In this document: positions 6,669 through 45,215 of the stretch, in pieces
Layout of the letters: every line of letters starts with the position of its first letter
How positions within the stretch are numbered: position 1 is the stretch's first letter
Assembly (NCBI RefSeq): GCF_000816145.1
Contig: NZ_CP007141.1
Coordinates: 2,046,001-2,110,000, forward strand
Direction of reading: 5' to 3'
Length of the DNA stretch: 64,000 nucleotides
DNA from: Pseudothermotoga hypogea DSM 11164 = NBRC 106472
Lineage (GTDB): Bacteria; Thermotogota; Thermotogae; Thermotogales; DSM-5069
The notes under the pieces: model-generated
Seen by the model: only the letters and a program-made list of their open reading frames with translations
Databases searched by the model: none
What the model was told of the DNA's origin: nothing
Translations under genes and position numbers: made by a program

Positions 6669-8063
6669 GTGAACGAAAAGATAGACAAGATAGTGCTCTC
6701 TCTCAAGGAAGAAATGTTCAAAGAAGCTTCAAATTTAGTGAAAATCAAATCTGTCCAATCCGATCCAGCACCTGGAAAGCCGTTCGGCGAGGGTGTGGCA
6801 CAGGCGTTGGATTACGCTTTGAAACTCGGTGAGAGGCTCGGTTTTCGTGTCAAGAATGTGGATGGCTATGCGGGACACATAGAGTACGGAGAAACTGGAA
6901 AACTTTTCGCGGTGCTGGGTCATTTGGACATCGTTCCGGAAGGAGAAGGTTGGAGCGTTGATCCTTATGGTGGGATCATCAAGGATGGCTATCTTTGGGG
7001 TCGTGGCGCTGCAGACAACAAAGGTCCCACCGTGGCTGTGATCTACGCCCTCAAAGCGGTCAAAGAAGCTGGCGTACCGATCAAGAATAGGGCGAGAATC
7101 ATTCTGGGAACGGACGAGGAATCAGGTTGGGAGTGTGTGAAGCACTACTTCGAAAAGGAAGAAAAACCGGTGTACGCAGTAACGCCGGACGCGGCTTTTC
7201 CAATCATATACGCGGAGAAAGGAATAATAACCTACAGGATCAGGATGAAAAGAGATCTATCTTCGAGCGGAAAGATCAAAGTGCTGAGATTCGAAGGTGG
7301 AGACGCTTCGAACGTGGTACCACAGAGTGCGGTTGTGGAGCTTTCCCCAGTCGACGATGAAACGATGCAGAAATTGAAAACTTTCCGAGCGAGGAACAAC
7401 GCACGCATAGATTGGTCGACAGAAAACGACAGGCTCGTGGTTCGAGCCCAGGGTAAATCCGCACATGGTTCCACGCCGGAGAAGGGGATCAACGCCATCG
7501 CTGCGCTCTTGGATTTTTTGAGAGATCTCGATCTGAGCGAAGATGTGAAGACATTCGTTCGTGTGCTCGCGAGCAAGATTGGTTACGAAACGGACGGATC
7601 GTCTTTGAGGATCGCCGGCAGAGACTGCGTGGTTGGAGATCTGACTGTGAATCTCGGAACCGTACGTATGAACGATGAGACGCTCGAGGCTACGATCAAC
7701 ATAAGATATCCCATCTACTATTCCGAAGAGATGATGGCCAGACAGATCAAGGAAGCTTTGAAGCCTCTGGACGTAGAGGGAGAGCACCATCTACCTCCAT
7801 TGTTCGTTTCCCCAGACAGCGAGTTGATCAAGATTCTGAGCGAAGTTTACACCGAGATGACCAACCAGCCTGCCACGCTCTTAACGATGGGTGGTGGCAC
7901 TTACGCACGCGCAGTGCCGTGTGGTGTGGCGTTCGGCCCGCTGCTTCCAGGAAGGGAAGGAACGGAGCATCAACCAGACGAGAGGATCGCACTGGATGAT
8001 TTGGTGACGGTCGCAAGGATCTACGCACAACTTTTCTACAGGATGCTCACACTCTGGGAATAG
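6669..8063 (+). CDS. M20-family dipeptidase, PepV-like
   Basis: 464 residues from GTG 6669. Zinc-site motifs of the M20 family are clear: VLGHLDIVPEG with the first histidine, WGRGAADNKGP with the bridging aspartate, GTDEESGWE with the catalytic glutamate pair, and AHGSTPEKG and MGGGTYARA later. The inserted lid domain of PepV/Sapep dipeptidases fits the length. An upstream in-frame ATG at 6618 lies inside the ZIP gene; GGAGGTG at 6655-6661 with a 7-base spacer favours GTG 6669. The enzyme should release free amino acids from dipeptides in the cytoplasm. It is the last gene of the plus-strand train and faces ligA with a 25-base gap. Confidence 0.9.
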   Translation: MNEKIDKIVLSLKEEMFKEASNLVKIKSVQSDPAPGKPFGEGVAQALDYALKLGERLGFRVKNVDGYAGHIEYGETGKLFAVLGHLDIVPEGEGWSVDPYGGIIKDGYLWGRGAADNKGPTVAVIYALKAVKEAGVPIKNRARIILGTDEESGWECVKHYFEKEEKPVYAVTPDAAFPIIYAEKGIITYRIRMKRDLSSSGKIKVLRFEGGDASNVVPQSAVVELSPVDDETMQKLKTFRARNNARIDWSTENDRLVVRAQGKSAHGSTPEKGINAIAALLDFLRDLDLSEDVKTFVRVLASKIGYETDGSSLRIAGRDCVVGDLTVNLGTVRMNDETLEATINIRYPIYYSEEMMARQIKEALKPLDVEGEHHLPPLFVSPDSELIKILSEVYTEMTNQPATLLTMGGGTYARAVPCGVAFGPLLPGREGTEHQPDERIALDDLVTVARIYAQLFYRMLTLWE

Positions 8064-8082
8064 CGAAACTTGCCAAACTTGT

Positions 8083-10786
<2,704 letters not shown>

Positions 10787-35997: not shown

Positions 35998-38232
35998 TCA
36001 CTTCAAACCCGTCCTTGCGATACCCTGAACGAAGTACCGCTGCGTGAAAAGAAACAGCACGATTATCGGCAGGATCGAGAAGGTGGCAGCGGCCATGAGC
36101 ATGTTGTACACCGTGCCGACGTCCGTGCTGAAGGTTTGAAGGCCAACAGGCAGCGTTCTGAACTTGTCCTTGTTGGTCACGATGAGCACCCACAAGAACG
36201 CGTTCCAGCTTCCAACGAACTTCAAGAGTGCGGATGTCACGATCGCGGGTTTCGACAAAGGAACGACCACTGTCCAGAGGAACCTCCAGTGGGAACAGCC
36301 GTCTATCTTGGCAGCGTCCTGCAGTTCTCTGGGAAGCGTCAGAAAATGCTGTCTGAGCAAAAAGATCGCAAAGACACTCACGATCCACGGTATTATGAGC
36401 GCATAGTAGGTATCAATCCAACCGAGCCTCGAAATCGTTATGAAGTTTGGAACAAGCAGAACTTCTCCAGGTATCATCATCGTACTCAAAAACAAGCTGA
36501 AGATCAATCCTTTACCCGGAAAACTCATCAAAGCGAACGCATACGCTGCCATGGCACAGAGGATAATCTCAACGACTGTGGTCACGGTCGAGACGAACAC
36601 GGTGTTGATGTAGTAGATACCAAACGGTGCGCTCCGCCAAGCGGCAACGTAATTGTGAAAGACATTGCCAAGGATTTCTCCGAACGTGTAATCCACCCGC
36701 ACATCGTAACGCTCATCCTCGAGATAAACCGGATCAACGTCTCGCAGCACGAGTTCTATCGTCTGGTTCTGTTTCAATCTCGCCTCGTTGACGAAATCGG
36801 GAGCCTGGACGATCTTCATCAGGCTTTGAACCCTTGATTGGAGCGATCTGAGCTTGCCTATCGTGTCTATCTCACTGCACACTTTCTTCAAAGCTTCGAA
36901 GAATTCGTTTTCTTCCACATTCTGAGTCAACTGCTCCATCCTACCCAGCACTAAAGCTGCAGCCATGCTGTCTTGTGATCGCAACCACTGTTTCAAGCTT
37001 TCAGCATCCTCGAAAGCTTGAAGACTCAAAGATTTCGAATTCAAAAGGTTCAACAGCTGTGAACCCAACTGTTTCATTTGCTGAACGTAGACTCTAATGC
37101 TCTCAATTCCGAAAGTGAGAAACTCGGAGTACAGTTTTTCGTCGATTCTCTTTTCCACTCTTTCTGCAAGCCCATCCAGAGATCTGTTCAGCTCCTGCTC
37201 AACGATCGCTTTCAGTTCTTCTGGCACATCGATCTGGTTTAGAGACAACAAAAATTCGTCTTTCTTTTCTCGTTCATCCATGAATCTGAACTTCACAACG
37301 ACTGAGCCAACACGTTCTTTCTGAACCGACTGGAAGAAATCATGCACGAACAGATAAGTCTCGAGTCGATCCAGCACGGTTCGAACCGTTTCCAAGACTC
37401 TCTGTTCGTAGAGCCGGATCACGGGATTGTTCCTTAATGGTTCACTCAGGTTGACGGTGTCGAGCTTCTCCATCCAAACGTTCAGTTCACGACGGATACT
37501 ATCCATTTCCGTTAGATCCAGAATCGCTGTCTTTCCCTTCTTGAAGATCGTCACAGATCCAACGACGTCTGCGCAGGCTTTCTTAACCGATTCCATGAAC
37601 TTAGAAAATTCGCTCCTGTTATCTTCGGGTATCCTCGACACATAGCGTGATAGAATCTCGATCTGTTCGATGGAAGAATTCGCTGTTTTTTCGACCAGCT
37701 CGACGTAGTTTCTCCGATCGAGATACGCATCTTTTCCGTGCAAATACAGAGCGAAGAATCTGCTGAAGAAAGTTTCTGCGTCGGAGCTCTCGTCGAGAAT
37801 TTGCAACACTTCTTTCTGTTTTGTGTTTTTCACCAGAGCGCTGGAAAACTCTTCGAACACGCTACTCTCCAGTTTGCCACGAAGGAACCCCGCATCTGTT
37901 GGGAAAGAAATCGTCATCGTACCCCTGTACACGGGATCATCGTCTATCTGAATTCGTAAGACATTCTTTTCCGTCTCACTCTGAACGAGCACGAGCGCTT
38001 CTCTCAGCGTCAAACCCTTCCAATCCAGACCACCGATGGAACCTCGTGACACGTTGGTTTTCAAATGCCACGTTCTGGAAAAATTCTTGCTCGTCCAGAT
38101 CGGAGGCCAGCGTTCCACCTCGCTCCGCGTTTTGAAAGACGTGGAGACCATCCACGCAAACGGCATGAGCATCACCACAGCACCTATCGAGAGCAAGGTG
38201 TAAATCAGAAAACTACTCAACGGACGTCTCAT
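35998..38232 (-). CDS. MalG-type sugar ABC transporter permease with a large extracytoplasmic insertion
   Basis: 744 residues; MalG-type permeases are usually near 280. Residues 1-40 hold the first membrane helix (SFLIYTLLSIGAVVMLMPFA) and the conserved MVSTSFK. Residues about 50-520 are a soluble, mostly helical insertion rich in E, K, L and S. From about 527 the normal core resumes: NYVAAWRSAPFGIYYINTVF, membrane helices, the EAA loop ELQDAAKIDGCSHWRFL and WNAFLWVLIVTN. The insertion sits where the short periplasmic loop between helices 1 and 2 should be, so it is outside the cell membrane. ATG 38232 has GAGGTGGAG upstream. No binding protein or ATPase gene is adjacent. Confidence 0.88.
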   Translation of the reverse strand: MRRPLSSFLIYTLLSIGAVVMLMPFAWMVSTSFKTRSEVERWPPIWTSKNFSRTWHLKTNVSRGSIGGLDWKGLTLREALVLVQSETEKNVLRIQIDDDPVYRGTMTISFPTDAGFLRGKLESSVFEEFSSALVKNTKQKEVLQILDESSDAETFFSRFFALYLHGKDAYLDRRNYVELVEKTANSSIEQIEILSRYVSRIPEDNRSEFSKFMESVKKACADVVGSVTIFKKGKTAILDLTEMDSIRRELNVWMEKLDTVNLSEPLRNNPVIRLYEQRVLETVRTVLDRLETYLFVHDFFQSVQKERVGSVVVKFRFMDEREKKDEFLLSLNQIDVPEELKAIVEQELNRSLDGLAERVEKRIDEKLYSEFLTFGIESIRVYVQQMKQLGSQLLNLLNSKSLSLQAFEDAESLKQWLRSQDSMAAALVLGRMEQLTQNVEENEFFEALKKVCSEIDTIGKLRSLQSRVQSLMKIVQAPDFVNEARLKQNQTIELVLRDVDPVYLEDERYDVRVDYTFGEILGNVFHNYVAAWRSAPFGIYYINTVFVSTVTTVVEIILCAMAAYAFALMSFPGKGLIFSLFLSTMMIPGEVLLVPNFITISRLGWIDTYYALIIPWIVSVFAIFLLRQHFLTLPRELQDAAKIDGCSHWRFLWTVVVPLSKPAIVTSALLKFVGSWNAFLWVLIVTNKDKFRTLPVGLQTFSTDVGTVYNMLMAAATFSILPIIVLFLFTQRYFVQGIARTGLK

Positions 38233-38242
38233 TTTCTCCACC

Positions 38243-39490
38243 TCATGACACGTACTCCACAACGCTCCTGCCGACCTTGAACTGGATCAGTGTGAAAAGA
38301 AGAATTATTGCGAACAATACGTATGCAGCCGCGCACGCTATGCCCATTCGCTGCTGAACGTAAAATCTGTCGAAGACGTAATAGACCATGGTCAGGCCAC
38401 TGTTGTTGTATGGCCCGGGTAAGCCACTGTACAACACATAGATTTCTGTGAAGACTTTGAACGCGTTTATCAGAGACACAATCAGCAAGAAAAAGGTGGT
38501 GGGACTGAGCAGAGGCCAAGTTATGTAGAGAAACTTCTGGCCAACGCTGGCTCCATCAACTTCCGCAGCCTCGTAGTAAGAACGATCGATGCTCTGAAGA
38601 CCTGCAAGAAAGATCACCGCATTGTAGCCAACGGTTCTCCAGATGGACACGATGGCGATGGTGGGAATCGTCCACCGTTCGTCCTTCAACCACGCGATCT
38701 TCTGAACGTTGAAGAACGAAAGAAAGTAGTTCAGCAAACCGTACGCGTCGTCGAAGATCCATCTCCACACGAGCGATATGGCCACAACGGAGGTCACGAA
38801 GGGTACGAAATATGCGGTTCTAAAGAAAGCTCTGAGTTTGATGTTCGAGTTCAGCATCAACGCGATCCCGAGCGCCAGGCCAATCGTGATAGGAACGGTG
38901 AGCACTACGTAGTAAAACGTGTTGAACATTGCCTTCACGAAGAGATTTCTGTCCCTACCCTCTAACAAGAAATCGATGACGGTGTAAAAACGTGTGTCGA
39001 ACGCGAGCATGAGCGTTACCGAACCCATGACACCCGCAATCAAACCCGGAATGTGCCTGGAAAGATATTGTTTGGTCCTCAAAACTGTAAAGATGAAAAG
39101 CAACAGGCAAAGACCAAGGACGAAGGTTCGAAAGATCGACTCATTGAAAACGTAGAGAAGAATCGATACGACCAGAAGAAACCACGCCACTTTACTTTTT
39201 CTGACGGCGCCATACAACGCAACGACGATAAACATCGAAACGAAGATCAAAAAGCACGTCCAAAGAAGAGCCTCCGCGAAGCTGTGGTCCATCGGTGGAA
39301 AGAACCTGAATATTTCCCTGTAATTCTCGAATCCTGCAAAAACAGGATTTCTCATGTTCCTGAAATCCCATCTGAAGAAGCTGAGAACGAACGAAAAGGC
39401 AACGGGCCAGAACACGAACGTGCCCAAAATCAAGAACGATGGCACCAAGAACAGATAGGCCAGCAACGCCTCGCGGACCCTTCTCTTCAC
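38243..39490 (-). CDS. MalF-type sugar ABC transporter permease with extra helices
   Basis: 415 residues versus about 290-300 for most MalF-like permeases. After the first helix (LLAYLFLVPSFLILGTFVFWP) and the WDFRNMRNPVFAGFENYREI loop there are several extra hydrophobic segments (ALLWTCFLIFVSMFIVVALY, WFLLVVSILLYVF, TFVLGLCLLLFIFTVL) before the standard core with AMFNTFYYVVLTVPITIGLA, FRTAYFVPFVTSVVAISLVW and the EAA loop YYEAAEVDGASVGQKF. It is the partner of the following MalG-like gene. Start GTG 39490, 10 bases after hslU. Confidence 0.88.
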   Translation of the reverse strand: MKRRVREALLAYLFLVPSFLILGTFVFWPVAFSFVLSFFRWDFRNMRNPVFAGFENYREIFRFFPPMDHSFAEALLWTCFLIFVSMFIVVALYGAVRKSKVAWFLLVVSILLYVFNESIFRTFVLGLCLLLFIFTVLRTKQYLSRHIPGLIAGVMGSVTLMLAFDTRFYTVIDFLLEGRDRNLFVKAMFNTFYYVVLTVPITIGLALGIALMLNSNIKLRAFFRTAYFVPFVTSVVAISLVWRWIFDDAYGLLNYFLSFFNVQKIAWLKDERWTIPTIAIVSIWRTVGYNAVIFLAGLQSIDRSYYEAAEVDGASVGQKFLYITWPLLSPTTFFLLIVSLINAFKVFTEIYVLYSGLPGPYNNSGLTMVYYVFDRFYVQQRMGIACAAAYVLFAIILLFTLIQFKVGRSVVEYVS

Positions 39491-40903: not shown

Positions 40904-41434
40904 TTAAAGTTCCTCGATCGTGATGTTGCTGTTTGTGTATATGCATATCTCACTCGCGATCTGCAAAGATTTCTCCGCTATCGCTCTTGCGTCGAGGTCG
41001 GTGTTTCGCATTAGAGCCCTCGCAGCGGCCAGCGCATACGGCGCACCAGAGCCGATGGCCGCCACGTTGTCGTCGGGCTGAACGACTTCTCCCGTACCAG
41101 ATATTATGAGCACGTTGTTCCTGTCTGCAACGAGTAAGAGAGCTTCCAACCTTCTCAAGATCCTGTCCGTCCTCCAATCCTTCGCCAGTTCCACCGCGGC
41201 TTTCAACAGATTGTTTCCCCACTCTCTGAGTTTCGCCTCGAAACGATCGAACAGGGCCATGGCATCTGCGACCGAACCTGCGAAACCCGCTAAGACTTGA
41301 CCATCAGCGATTTTCCTGATCTTCCTGGCGCCATGTTTGAGTACCGTGTTGCCATAGGTTACCTGACCATCTCCCGCCATGACGGTTTTACCGTTTCTCG
41401 AAACAACGAGTATAGTTGTAGATCTCCAACTCAT
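40904..41434 (-). CDS. hslV: ATP-dependent protease peptidase subunit HslV
   Basis: 176 residues. After a five-residue propeptide (MSWRS) comes [20 protein letters not shown], so the first Thr is the catalytic N-terminal nucleophile after processing, as in other HslV with short leaders. [20 protein letters not shown] and [16 protein letters not shown] are further family marks. ATG 41434 is preceded by AGGAGGTGAGCCA and overlaps the stop of the upstream giant membrane gene (ATGA). Confidence 0.97.
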
Positions 41435-44400
41435 TGGCTCACCTCCTCGAGAACGTTGTAAAATGCTACGAATCTGGAATACCTTTCCCAAAGTTTCAGT
41501 GCCATGGGCACGTTGTTCACCACAACCTTTATCTCCTGAACTGCCTGGTTGAGCTTGTTCTGATCTTTGATCACGTTTGATAGCAATCTCTGCACTTCGT
41601 TGATCATCGCGCTCGTAAGACTCGACACCAGGCTGTGAGCCTTGTTCACATCACCGCCTTGAATCGCCGTCAGTTCATTGTTTATCGCCATTTTCCAGTC
41701 TGCGGATTTGAACTGCGACTCGATTTGATCTGAAAGTCCCTCGACGATCGATTGCACGCTCTTTATCCTCACGCTCGGTACGTTCTCCTTCGATAGTATC
41801 CGTTCGATCGCCTTCGACACGTTCTGGAGGTACTCGTCTATGGTTTTCTTGAGATCCAATCTCTGTAGTTCGCTCGCTATTCGCTCGAAACTCGGTTTGT
41901 AATCTTCACGCATTGTTTGTAGAAGTTCATTTGCACGAACAGGATCGTGTGCTCTCAAAAACTGGACTGCGACGAGATAGATCAATGCAGCGCCATCTGG
42001 AACGCCCCAGACCCCCTTAGAAGCAACGGCTTCGCACGCCCAAATCTCTTTACGAGCCAGGTACTGCAGAAATTCTATGGCTTTATCGTTCGTCAAAGAT
42101 TCGAAGCTCGCCAACTGTACTGCCAACACCCTGTAGATGTCTTCACCCTGAATCGCCCTCAGCGTATCGGGATTTTTCCATTCGGGATATCTGTTCCAAG
42201 AGTCTGGCAAACGATACACTGTGCCCTTCGCCCAGTATATGAACTCGTCTCGATACTTTTCGTAGAGCCCTTCGAGCTTCTGCAGTACCGCTTTACCAGT
42301 TTCATTTTCTTGGAGATAGTCCAACTGGCGTCTCAACTGTTTGATAGCACCCGCGAGCGTTGCGTACCTCGCGGCGAGAGCCTTGTAGGTGTTTCGCTCG
42401 TTGAAACTCAGCAACGATGTTTTGAACAGCGCGCAGGAATCGATCATCGCCTGAAGATACGCTATGGTGCTCTCATCGATCGAATTGGGATTGGACCTCC
42501 TCAAATCCATCAAGAAGAGCAGATCTGAGGTCTTGAACTGAGGTGCGATGACACTTTGGTAATCATCGTAGTTCTGAGTCAGAACCGACGTTTTTCCATC
42601 CTTCAGAGCATTCGTAAGCCCACTGATCCTTTCCCCCCTCAGCGCCAGAGAAGCAAGATAGAAATGTGATTTTCCGTACGTGTGGTTCAGCTTGACGGAT
42701 TTCAAGAGGTTCTCCATGGCCAGTTTCGAATGCTGTTGCTGCAGTCGCTGTATCTCCTTCAAGCCGTTTCTCACCTTTTCAAGGTCGTTCGTGATGCTGG
42801 TTCTCATCGAAACGATTTGATTTATTCTCCTCTTTTCTACCTCTACAGGATCGAGGTTCTCGATCTTGAAGTTCTCAGGCCTCAAGTTGACGAACGGGCC
42901 AGACAGGTTCTCGAGCTCCTCCAACCTCGTCAAGAGCGTTTTTTCAAGTTGCTCCAATCTGTTCTTCTCACCTTCCAGATTGGCGAGGAAGCTGTACGAG
43001 CTGTTCCCACTCTTGAAGTAGACTTCAGAAACGAAGTAGTTCCACTTAAGATAGGTCGTCGACAACACTGTGAACAAAGCTAAGACCAACGCCACGGCGA
43101 GCTTGAAACCACGCAGGTTGATTCTCCATGACAGAAACCCGTTTTCAATGGGATTGAAATGAACTCCTGTCGCAACCGCAGCGTAGAAGATCGCAAGCAA
43201 CGAGTTCGGCAAAAGATGGCCTGGAAAGCTGAAAAAGCTTTGAACCATGAACCCTACAAAGCCCACACTCATGGCCAAGAACAAGAGAAAGTCCTCAAAG
43301 CTCTTCAACTTCTTGAAACGGTTCAGGGCGTACACACCGAGCAAGACGGCCAAAACCAACAACGTGACAAAACCGAGTACACCCATTTCACCCAGCACCT
43401 GGAAATAATCGTTGTGCGTGCGTTTGAAGTTGTTCCATACGTAAAGGAATCGAGGATGTTTCTCCATCACTTTCGCCAGCTCTTCGATGGCGAGAATTTG
43501 GTAGGTACCTATACCTGTACCTATCCACTTGCTTTTTTTCCACTGTTCAACGGCAGAAAGCCACGCTAAGAGCCTTTCTTCCGCGTTCGAAGCGAAAACT
43601 TGGGGGGCGAACCTTCCAAGGAGTGAAACTGTTCCATACCTCGTCAGCGGATTGTCCGTGTTGTAAACGACAAGCACCGCTATCGACAGGATCACAAGGA
43701 GAACAAAGATGATTCTGTTGAAGCGTTTTAACTGTTCTCCGAACGGCGCCTCTTCTCTCTCTTTGTTCCTACGATAGATGAGATAAAAGAAAACGAAGAG
43801 AAAGATCATGATCGCGAGCGCTATGTATTCTGACCTGGTTTGGCCTATGGCGATCACGATCAACGCCAAAAGGAAGTAAACCAGAGAAAAGATCTTGACC
43901 ATCACATACTCTTTCTTCTTCGCGTTCTTCCAACCGTAATTGTTCGAAATGATGAAATAGAGGCTGACGGGTAACAGCATTCCAAGATAATTCGTCACGA
44001 AGATGACGTTCCCAACGCTCGATCTTATCGTGACCCTGTCGAAAGGTGCACCGACGTTTCCGAAGAAAATACTGGTTCCGGTGTAGAAATTGAGCAAACT
44101 ATCTATCGCCACAACCATGCCAGATGCGAGGAATGTCAGTAAAAGTCTCGTTATGACGTCCCTCGAGCGTGTTCTGTTCGAAAAATAAAGCGCCATGAAT
44201 GCCGTGAGGAGAGTGTAGAGGGCTATGTCGATGGAGTATCTGAAGTAAAAACGGTTGTTCTGAAACACATACAGCGTGGAGAGCAGAGCGCACGCAGCGA
44301 AGATGAACCAAAGCAGGTTCGCAAAGGATAGATGCAAGCTCAGTTCGAACTTGTTTCTCTTGGACCATTCTATCAAGAGCAATATCACTATCAACAGTGC

Positions 44401-44517
44401 GAAAAGAGTGATGAACGCGTATTTGGGCACGCTGAACTCGTAAGTGATTTTCCTGTTCGCCAAAAGTGCGATCACGATTATGCTGACATGCAGCATCGCT
44501 TCTTCCAATTTCTTCAT
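41431..44517 (-). CDS. O-antigen-ligase-like membrane protein with long C-terminal helical domain
   Basis: 1028 residues from ATG 44517 (GAGGAGG upstream). The N-terminal part of about 470 residues has about eleven to twelve membrane helices and the Wzy/WaaL-type signature: a long periplasmic loop with [35 protein letters not shown] and [18 protein letters not shown], where the H of the THNDYF motif is typical. The remaining 550 residues are soluble and largely helical (coiled-coil near [19 protein letters not shown], and [20 protein letters not shown] resembling a TPR). Family members join glycan chains to an acceptor; the substrate is unknown. It is first in line before hslVU. Confidence 0.8.
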
Positions 44518-44528
44518 GCGCTTCCTCC

Positions 44529-45215
44529 TCACCCTTTGAAAATCAGCACTAAGTAATCTATTATGGGGGACAAAACCAAAGCGGGTAGCAAGTTACCCAC
44601 CTTGATGTCCCTGACCTCGAGCAACCTCAATCCGATCGCAAGAACGATGAGACCCCCGGCGCCCGTGAAGTTTGCGAGGTAAGTCTGCTGCGTCAGGAAC
44701 GAAAGTTGCGATGCCAACAATACCATACCACCCTGAACGAGCAGAACGACGACACTCGTGAGAAGCACGCCGACGCCGTAGAGTGAGGCCAGAACGATCG
44801 AGGAAATGAAATCCAGTACAGATTTCACATAGATCAATGTACCATCGTTCAGCAGGCCAGCTCTCACAGAACCAACGATCGTCATGGGACCGACGAGGAA
44901 CAGCGTGGTCGCTGCCACGAAACCCTTCGCGAACCTGGTCGAATCCTTCGAGAACTTACCAACCCTCGACAGTTTCTCTTCTATGTCGAGTGTTTCACCA
45001 AGGATTGCACCGAGTGCGAGAGCGAGCAGAACGATTATGAAGTTCGAAGTGTCGAGAGTCATCTTGATCCCAACACCAACCGTGGTCAAACCCACTGCCT
45101 GGAAGAGGACCTTCTTGAACCTTTCGGAAATCGCTTTGCCAAGAGCCATGCCCAGCAAAGAACCAGCGAGCACGCACGCGGAATTGATCAAGACCGAAGG
45201 ATGTATTTGAAGCAC
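44529..45215 (-). CDS. DUF554-family membrane protein
   Basis: 228 residues, about seven hydrophobic helices. It has the marks of the DUF554 (YdfK/YqgA-like) family: VLAGSLLGMALGKAI, KKVLFQAVGLTTVGVGIKMTL, ALALGAILGETLDIEEKL, VGPMTIVGSVRAGLLNDGT and ATGAGG-like FTGAGGLIVLAIGLRLLEVRDIKVGNLLPAL. Function is unknown; a transporter role is often guessed. The GTG at 45215 touches the AGGAG site directly, so the true start may be slightly downstream. It opens the minus-strand train and is divergent from coaX. Confidence 0.85.
   Translation of the reverse strand: MLQIHPSVLINSACVLAGSLLGMALGKAISERFKKVLFQAVGLTTVGVGIKMTLDTSNFIIVLLALALGAILGETLDIEEKLSRVGKFSKDSTRFAKGFVAATTLFLVGPMTIVGSVRAGLLNDGTLIYVKSVLDFISSIVLASLYGVGVLLTSVVVLLVQGGMVLLASQLSFLTQQTYLANFTGAGGLIVLAIGLRLLEVRDIKVGNLLPALVLSPIIDYLVLIFKG

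What the first reader, a model, noticed from the sequence alone, without database searches (positions are those of the whole stretch)
35998..38232. ABC permease with an outside insertion of about 440 residues
The MalG-like core is split after its first membrane helix by a long helical soluble region. The insertion could replace the missing binding protein, gate the channel or contact the outer toga. No SBP or ATPase gene is near.
Basis: seen in the sequence. Interest (0 to 1): 0.6.

Follow-up and report, generated by a model that had tools for sequence, protein, structure and literature searches.

The report
Sugar importer subunit with giant loop
This is an ordinary-core sugar-type import channel of heat-loving Thermotogota bacteria in which one membrane subunit carries an extra, roughly 470-residue outside domain of no recognised fold, kept across the whole phylum and probably helping to dock a binding protein that is encoded elsewhere in the genome.

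Summary
The gene at 38232-35998 (-) is one intact open frame: a MalG/UgpE-type permease with about 470 residues inserted between helices 1 and 2, on the outer side. It is not an artefact. Full-length orthologues occur in 98 of 103 Thermotogota genomes, and the insertion is under purifying selection.

A UgpB-like binding protein (G000:C1:1011720-1012970, about 1 Mb away) is the genome's only SBP_bac_1 protein without a nearby permease. Its orthologue lies beside this permease pair in Thermotoga, and both genes are absent together in four genomes (Fisher p = 8e-5). A lone UgpC/MalK-type ATPase at 353738 is the likely motor. A shortened paralogue of the permease sits in an operon with relatives of the same binding protein.

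AlphaFold gives a confident insertion model: a small conserved alpha/beta base plus variable helical bundles. It is not a binding-protein fold and has no clear PDB relative. The insertion sits where MalF carries its P2 domain, so the best reading is a P2-like docking cap.

A comparable loop of unrelated sequence was reported for Thermotogales MalG1/MalG2 in 2008. Verdict: a new variant of a known kind, of moderate interest.

The parts
35998..38232 (-). MalG/UgpE-type permease gene with long TM1-TM2 insertion (744 aa from ATG 38232; frame open from TTG 38262)
   Evidence: ATG preceded by AGGTGGAG
38137..38214 (-). TM1 (residues 17-42 in 754-aa numbering), conserved, N-terminus inside
36673..38085 (-). 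Extracytoplasmic insertion, residues about 60-530: conserved base at both ends, variable helical middle
37906..38085 (-). Conserved N-terminal half of the base (residues 60-119; GLSLxEAL ... DDPxYRGT; R113 and G114 invariant)
36673..36822 (-). Conserved C-terminal half of the base (residues 481-530; APxFVKxVR ... VxPVYLxD; P488 invariant)
36001..36660 (-). Permease core TM2-TM6 with EAA coupling loop (residues 535-754; EAA at about 646-660)
   Evidence: BPD_transp_1 1.3e-20; structural match to MalG
38243..39490 (-). Partner MalF/UgpA-type permease (415 aa); a neighbour of the MalG-type gene in nearly all relatives examined
38966..39283 (-). Extra hydrophobic block (residues 70-175, about 4 predicted membrane helices) in the MalF-type partner between its first helix and the core, the least conserved part of the protein
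   Evidence: hydropathy only

Best explanation
A CUT1-type (Ugp/Mal-like) ABC importer in which the MalG-type subunit carries, in its first extracytoplasmic loop, a domain that does the job the MalF P2 domain does in E. coli: it stands over the channel mouth and helps hold or orient the substrate-binding protein. The binding protein is the UgpB-like SBP encoded about 1 Mb away (G000:C1:1011720-1012970), and the motor is most likely the lone UgpC/MalK-type ATPase (G000:C1:353738-354835). The conserved base of the insertion would be the working surface and the variable helical bundle an outward arm. Shown: intact gene, phylum-wide conservation, outside topology by parity and structural alignment, genetic link to the SBP, non-SBP predicted fold, position equivalent to MalF P2. 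Inferred: physical docking, identity of the ATPase, sugar or glycerol-phosphate type substrate.
For: (1) Core and partner are best matched by UgpE/UgpA, the orphan SBP by UgpB, the lone ATPase by UgpC. (2) In Thermotoga-group genomes the SBP gene lies directly beside the MalF gene, divergent. (3) Co-occurrence over 103 genomes: both 94, permease only 4, SBP only 1, neither 4; Fisher p = 8e-5, or 3e-6 in genomes at least 90% complete. (4) In the window's genome 24 of 25 SBP_bac_1 proteins pair with a nearby permease; the one left over is this SBP. (5) A shortened 566-aa paralogue keeps both ends of the insertion and lacks most of the middle; its operon holds three SBPs about 33-36% identical to the same SBP, and the five genomes with a second long-permease-like hit of this kind are the ones with extra SBP hits at E < 1e-60. 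(6) The model aligns with MalG on both sides of the insertion and also with MalF chains from just before P2; P2 is MalF residues 91-271 and contacts MalE (PMC3150292). (7) The same genome's MalG1 has a similar loop and does have its own MalE beside it. (8) The EAA loop is conserved, so an ATPase is expected; only one CUT1-type ATPase has no permease of its own.
Against: No complex was modelled and no contact between insertion and SBP is shown. One complete genome (G042) keeps the permease without this SBP. A second compact permease pair in the genome (1722055) also lacks a neighbouring SBP, so elimination alone does not assign the SBP. Gene linkage shows that SBP and permease belong together, not what the insertion does.
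Confidence: 0.55

Rival explanations
1. The insertion replaces the binding protein and itself captures substrate.
For: No SBP gene in the neighbourhood; fused SBP-permeases exist in other ABC importers (general knowledge; NCBIfam holds one such model).
Against: A co-inherited SBP exists and is adjacent in Thermotoga; the insertion model is not a binding-protein fold; MalG1 has a similar loop plus its own MalE; the shortened paralogue sits with SBPs.
Confidence: 0.05
2. The insertion is a regulatory or sensory module: a helical bundle that senses a periplasmic signal and gates the channel.
For: The residue 186-309 bundle resembles the McpS chemoreceptor ligand-binding domain (Z 10.5, rmsd 3.6-4.1, 111-114 residues).
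Against: Z 10.5 is below the level the tool calls meaningful for helical bundles (about 13), and unrelated bundles score the same. This part is variable, and the shortened paralogue lacks much of the body.
Confidence: 0.12
3. The insertion is a structural spacer or anchor: it stabilises the complex or contacts the cell wall or outer toga.
For: Restricted to Thermotogota as far as the scan reached; variable distal bundle.
Against: The most conserved part is the base next to the membrane, not the distal end. No peptidoglycan or outer-membrane binding domain was found.
Confidence: 0.15
4. Lineage-specific expansion that is tolerated and has little function.
For: The insertion evolves faster than the core (dN/dS 0.12 against 0.04) and varies in length across the phylum.
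Against: Kept in 98 of 103 genomes, purifying selection, invariant residues R113, G114, P488, confidently folded model.
Confidence: 0.1

Closest known systems
Thermotogales MalG1/MalG2 (Noll et al. 2008, PMC2246101)
   Same: Same phylum, same subunit type, about 500 hydrophilic residues between TM1 and TM2, function unknown. The window's genome has its own MalG1 (821 aa; L065:6297-8762).
   Different: The insertion sequences are not detectably related (hhalign probability 7%; HMM search negative). MalG1 keeps MalE in its operon and goes with MalF/MalE, not Ugp-like partners.
E. coli MalF P2 domain (MalFGK2-MalE)
   Same: Large extracytoplasmic domain at the pseudo-symmetric position, between the first and second core helices; P2 contacts MalE (PMC3150292).
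   Different: Here it is in the MalG-type subunit, about 2.5 times larger, mostly helical; no sequence or fold match to P2 was found.
UgpA/UgpE/UgpB/UgpC glycerol-3-phosphate importer
   Same: Best curated matches of all four parts.
   Different: Both permeases and the SBP score well below the equivalog cut-offs; the UgpE model has no room for such an insertion (281 positions); genes scattered over three loci; substrate unknown.
Periplasmic sugar-binding protein 7c14 and relatives (from memory: Thermus alpha-glycoside-binding protein)
   Same: Closest solved relative of the SBP (E 5e-46).
   Different: Different organism; its permease partner was not examined here.
Shared ATPases MsiK / MsmK
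   Same: One lone CUT1-type ATPase serving several ATPase-less permeases (papers listed).
   Different: Sharing in Thermotogota is inferred here, not shown.

Membership tests
CUT1 (MalFG/UgpAE-type) ABC importer permease | BPD_transp_1 domain with EAA coupling loop | tested here: met
   PF00528 1.3e-20 and 2.8e-17; EAA...G motif aligned in both subunits
CUT1 (MalFG/UgpAE-type) ABC importer permease | MalG-like six-helix core fold | tested here: met
   AF2 model aligns with MalG chains, Z 11.8, rmsd 4.0, 223 residues, model 15-752 to 3rlf_G 11-290
CUT1 (MalFG/UgpAE-type) ABC importer permease | MalF-type partner gene adjacent | tested here: met
   38243-39490, next to it in nearly all relatives examined
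CUT1 (MalFG/UgpAE-type) ABC importer permease | Separate substrate-binding protein | tested here: met
   Unlinked orthologue in own genome, adjacent in Thermotoga, co-inherited
CUT1 (MalFG/UgpAE-type) ABC importer permease | MalK/UgpC-type ATPase | tested here: inconclusive
   Lone UgpC-type ATPase present, 524 bits; pairing not shown
UgpABCE glycerol-3-phosphate importer | Passes the NCBIfam equivalog cut-offs for UgpE, UgpA, UgpB | tested here: not met
   142 against 297, 88 against 335, 112 against 411 bits
Thermotogales MalG1/MalG2 | Insertion homologous to the MalG1 insertion | tested here: not met
   (sequence profiles only)
MalF P2 domain | Position between first and second core helices | tested here: met
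   P2 is residues 91-271 of MalF
MalF P2 domain | Contacts the binding protein | not testable with these tools
   no complex prediction available
SBP-permease fusion | Binding-protein fold fused to the permease | tested here: inconclusive
   Mostly helical model with short strands; no SBP family in sequence searches, none listed in fold searches

The most novel reading that the evidence does not exclude
A phylum-core importer of Thermotogota in which MalG, not MalF, carries a new-fold docking cap that recruits a binding protein encoded far away, a separate solution to the job of the MalF P2 domain that evolved at least twice in this phylum (here and in MalG1).
Probability: 0.35. Interest if true: 0.55.

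Novelty: new variant of a known kind. Interest (0 to 1): 0.4.

Why it matters
It adds a second, sequence-unrelated large extracytoplasmic domain on a MalG-type subunit to the one reported in 2008, and it gives that domain a near phylum-wide distribution, a confident model and a matched but scattered binding protein. It makes a clear question testable: can a MalG-side cap do what MalF P2 does? It also warns that an operon without an SBP does not mean an importer without an SBP. This transporter is retained in 98 of 103 Thermotogota genomes with no known substrate.

Tried and rejected
Frameshift or assembly artefact: rejected by conservation. Built-in SBP: rejected as the main reading (see rivals). 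Homology with the MalG1 insertion: not found. Known fold for the insertion: no PDB sequence relative (only weak helical matches), no Foldseek hit at E <= 0.001 in PDB or viral models; VIA-align gives helical bundles at Z up to 10.6, below its guide for bundles, so no fold is assigned and a known fold is not excluded. Deinococcus plasmid hit H2 looked like a longer match but is an ordinary-size permease gene of 837 bp. Apparent long permeases at 1342076, 1722055 and 1969683 in the own genome look like upstream in-frame extension, not insertions (read through directly only for 1722055); the one at 1035627 has a real extra stretch of about 120 residues beside an SBP. Papers naming the T. maritima orthologues (gene numbers recalled from memory) were not found. 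Outside Thermotogota: the genome scan returned only Thermotogota, but it used one short pattern.

Full report
What is there. The gene 38232-35998 (-) is intact. Its frame is open from a TTG at 38262, but the start is very likely the ATG at 38232 after AGGTGGAG. Residue numbers below count from the TTG. The C-terminal 220 residues are a BPD_transp_1 core, nearest to UgpE. TM1 is at about 17-42 and TM2 at about 547-578, so about 470 residues (60-530) are inserted between them. The upstream gene 38243-39490 is the MalF/UgpA-type partner. In the window's genus the pair sits between an hslU-type AAA gene and a methyltransferase gene followed by a miaA-like gene (the miaA name is from the sequence, not tested). 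The permease-partner adjacency recurs in nearly all relatives examined, and parts of the flanking order recur in several families.

Is it real? Relatives of the whole protein are in 98 of 103 Thermotogota genomes, nearly all in an open frame long enough for the insertion. Identity inside the insertion falls from 82% in the genus to about 15-25% across the phylum, with R113, G114 and P488 invariant. dN/dS against the nearest relative is 0.12 in the insertion and 0.04 in the core. A genome-collection scan with the insertion returned 25 loci, all Thermotogota by title, Pseudothermotoga among the nearest. A join of two genes by error is excluded.

Which side? The EAA coupling loop (about 646-660) is cytoplasmic in all such importers (established knowledge) and lies between TM4 and TM5 of the model. 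With TM1 entering from inside, parity puts the TM1-TM2 loop outside. VIA-align places the model on E. coli MalG from residue 15 to 752 (Z 11.8, 223 residues, rmsd 4.0), and on MalF chains from residues 56-57 onward, i.e. from just before the P2 domain (residues 91-271, PMC3150292). So the insertion sits in MalG at the place where MalF holds P2.

What is the insertion? The model of the whole protein has pLDDT about 80-92 over most of the insertion, and the insertion folded alone has a mean of 86. It has a small alpha/beta base made from its two conserved ends (strands near 64-71, 101-119 and 481-524) and a variable, mostly helical body. It has no sequence relative in the PDB beyond weak helical matches, and no Foldseek match at E <= 0.001. 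Helical-bundle matches (McpS ligand-binding domain, copper storage proteins) reach Z 10.6, which the tool's own guide does not treat as meaningful for bundles. A shortened paralogue (L062:3216-4916, 566 aa) keeps the two ends (hmmsearch domains at profile 2-144 and 438-503) and lacks most of the middle. This points to the base as the essential part.

Where is the binding protein? In Thermotoga-group genomes an SBP gene lies next to the MalF gene, divergent (L078:11915-13174). Its orthologue in the window's genome (62% identical) is at G000:C1:1011720-1012970, inside a cluster whose neighbours recur in other families. Across 103 genomes, 94 have both genes, 4 only the permease (two of them 71% complete), 1 only the SBP (79% complete) and 4 neither; Fisher p = 8e-5, or 3e-6 for genomes at least 90% complete. 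These tests ignore relatedness, but the four double absences fall in three separate genera from three families (g9, g17, g32). In the own genome, 24 of 25 SBP_bac_1 proteins pair with a permease within 4.5 kb; the one left over is this SBP. Two permease pairs lack a neighbour SBP, this one and 1722055, so elimination alone is not proof. Five genomes have a second long-permease-like hit of the shortened kind, and these are the ones with additional SBP hits at E < 1e-60, often on the same contig and close by.

Where is the ATPase? Six CUT1-type ATPases score above 325 bits; five sit within 1.1 kb of their own permease, and one (353738-354835, UgpC, 524 bits) is 139 kb from any MalG-type gene. 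Most permease pairs of this genome have no such ATPase beside them, so a shared one is likely, as known for MsmK and MsiK (papers listed). This is inference.

Prior art. Noll et al. 2008 reported about 500 hydrophilic residues between TM1 and TM2 of Thermotogales MalG1 and MalG2, function unknown. The window's genome has its own MalG1 beside MalF1 and MalE. The two insertions are not related by profile comparison (hhalign probability 7%; hmmsearch negative). So the architecture has a precedent in the phylum; this family and its insertion do not appear in the papers found.

Mechanism. Most likely a conventional importer: the SBP brings its ligand (UgpB-like, nearest solved relative a sugar-binding protein), docks on the MalF/MalG-type pair, and the insertion caps or orients it as P2 does in MalFGK2-MalE. 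The pieces are shown; the docking is inferred.

The partner subunit. The MalF-type partner has about four extra hydrophobic segments between its first helix and its core (residues 70-175), hydrophobic on average across relatives but poorly conserved. Both subunits are thus elaborated at the same loop. This rests on hydropathy only.

Noticed in passing
window 38243-39490 (-), residues 70-175: The MalF-type partner carries about four extra predicted membrane helices between its first helix and the core, poorly conserved but hydrophobic across the phylum.
   Followed up: partly
L062:1950-8752 (-): A shortened 566-aa paralogue of the permease in an operon with a MalF-type partner and three SBP genes; five genomes of one family appear to carry such a paralogue.
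   Followed up: partly
window 41431-44532 (-): 1033-aa O-antigen-ligase-type protein (Wzy_C at 219-391) with a soluble region of about 550 residues after the membrane part.
   Followed up: no
L190:4050-5761 (-) (G000:C1 about 1722055): A compact MalF/MalG-type pair without any SBP_bac_1 gene nearby, among the closest paralogues of the window's permease core (about 45% identical).
   Followed up: partly
L077:8578-10728, L069:8786 onward, L121:8416-9204 and 7940-8425: The permease (G016, G006) or SBP (G041) frame is broken in single genomes; decay or sequencing error not resolved.
   Followed up: no
L078:6789-8429 (-): In Thermotoga-group genomes a CehA/McbA-type metallohydrolase gene follows the permease closely, a possible hint to a phosphoester or related substrate.
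   Followed up: no
L191:5082-6296 (+): Another MalG-type permease of the own genome has a smaller extra stretch (about 120 residues) between TM1 and TM2, next to its own SBP.
   Followed up: no
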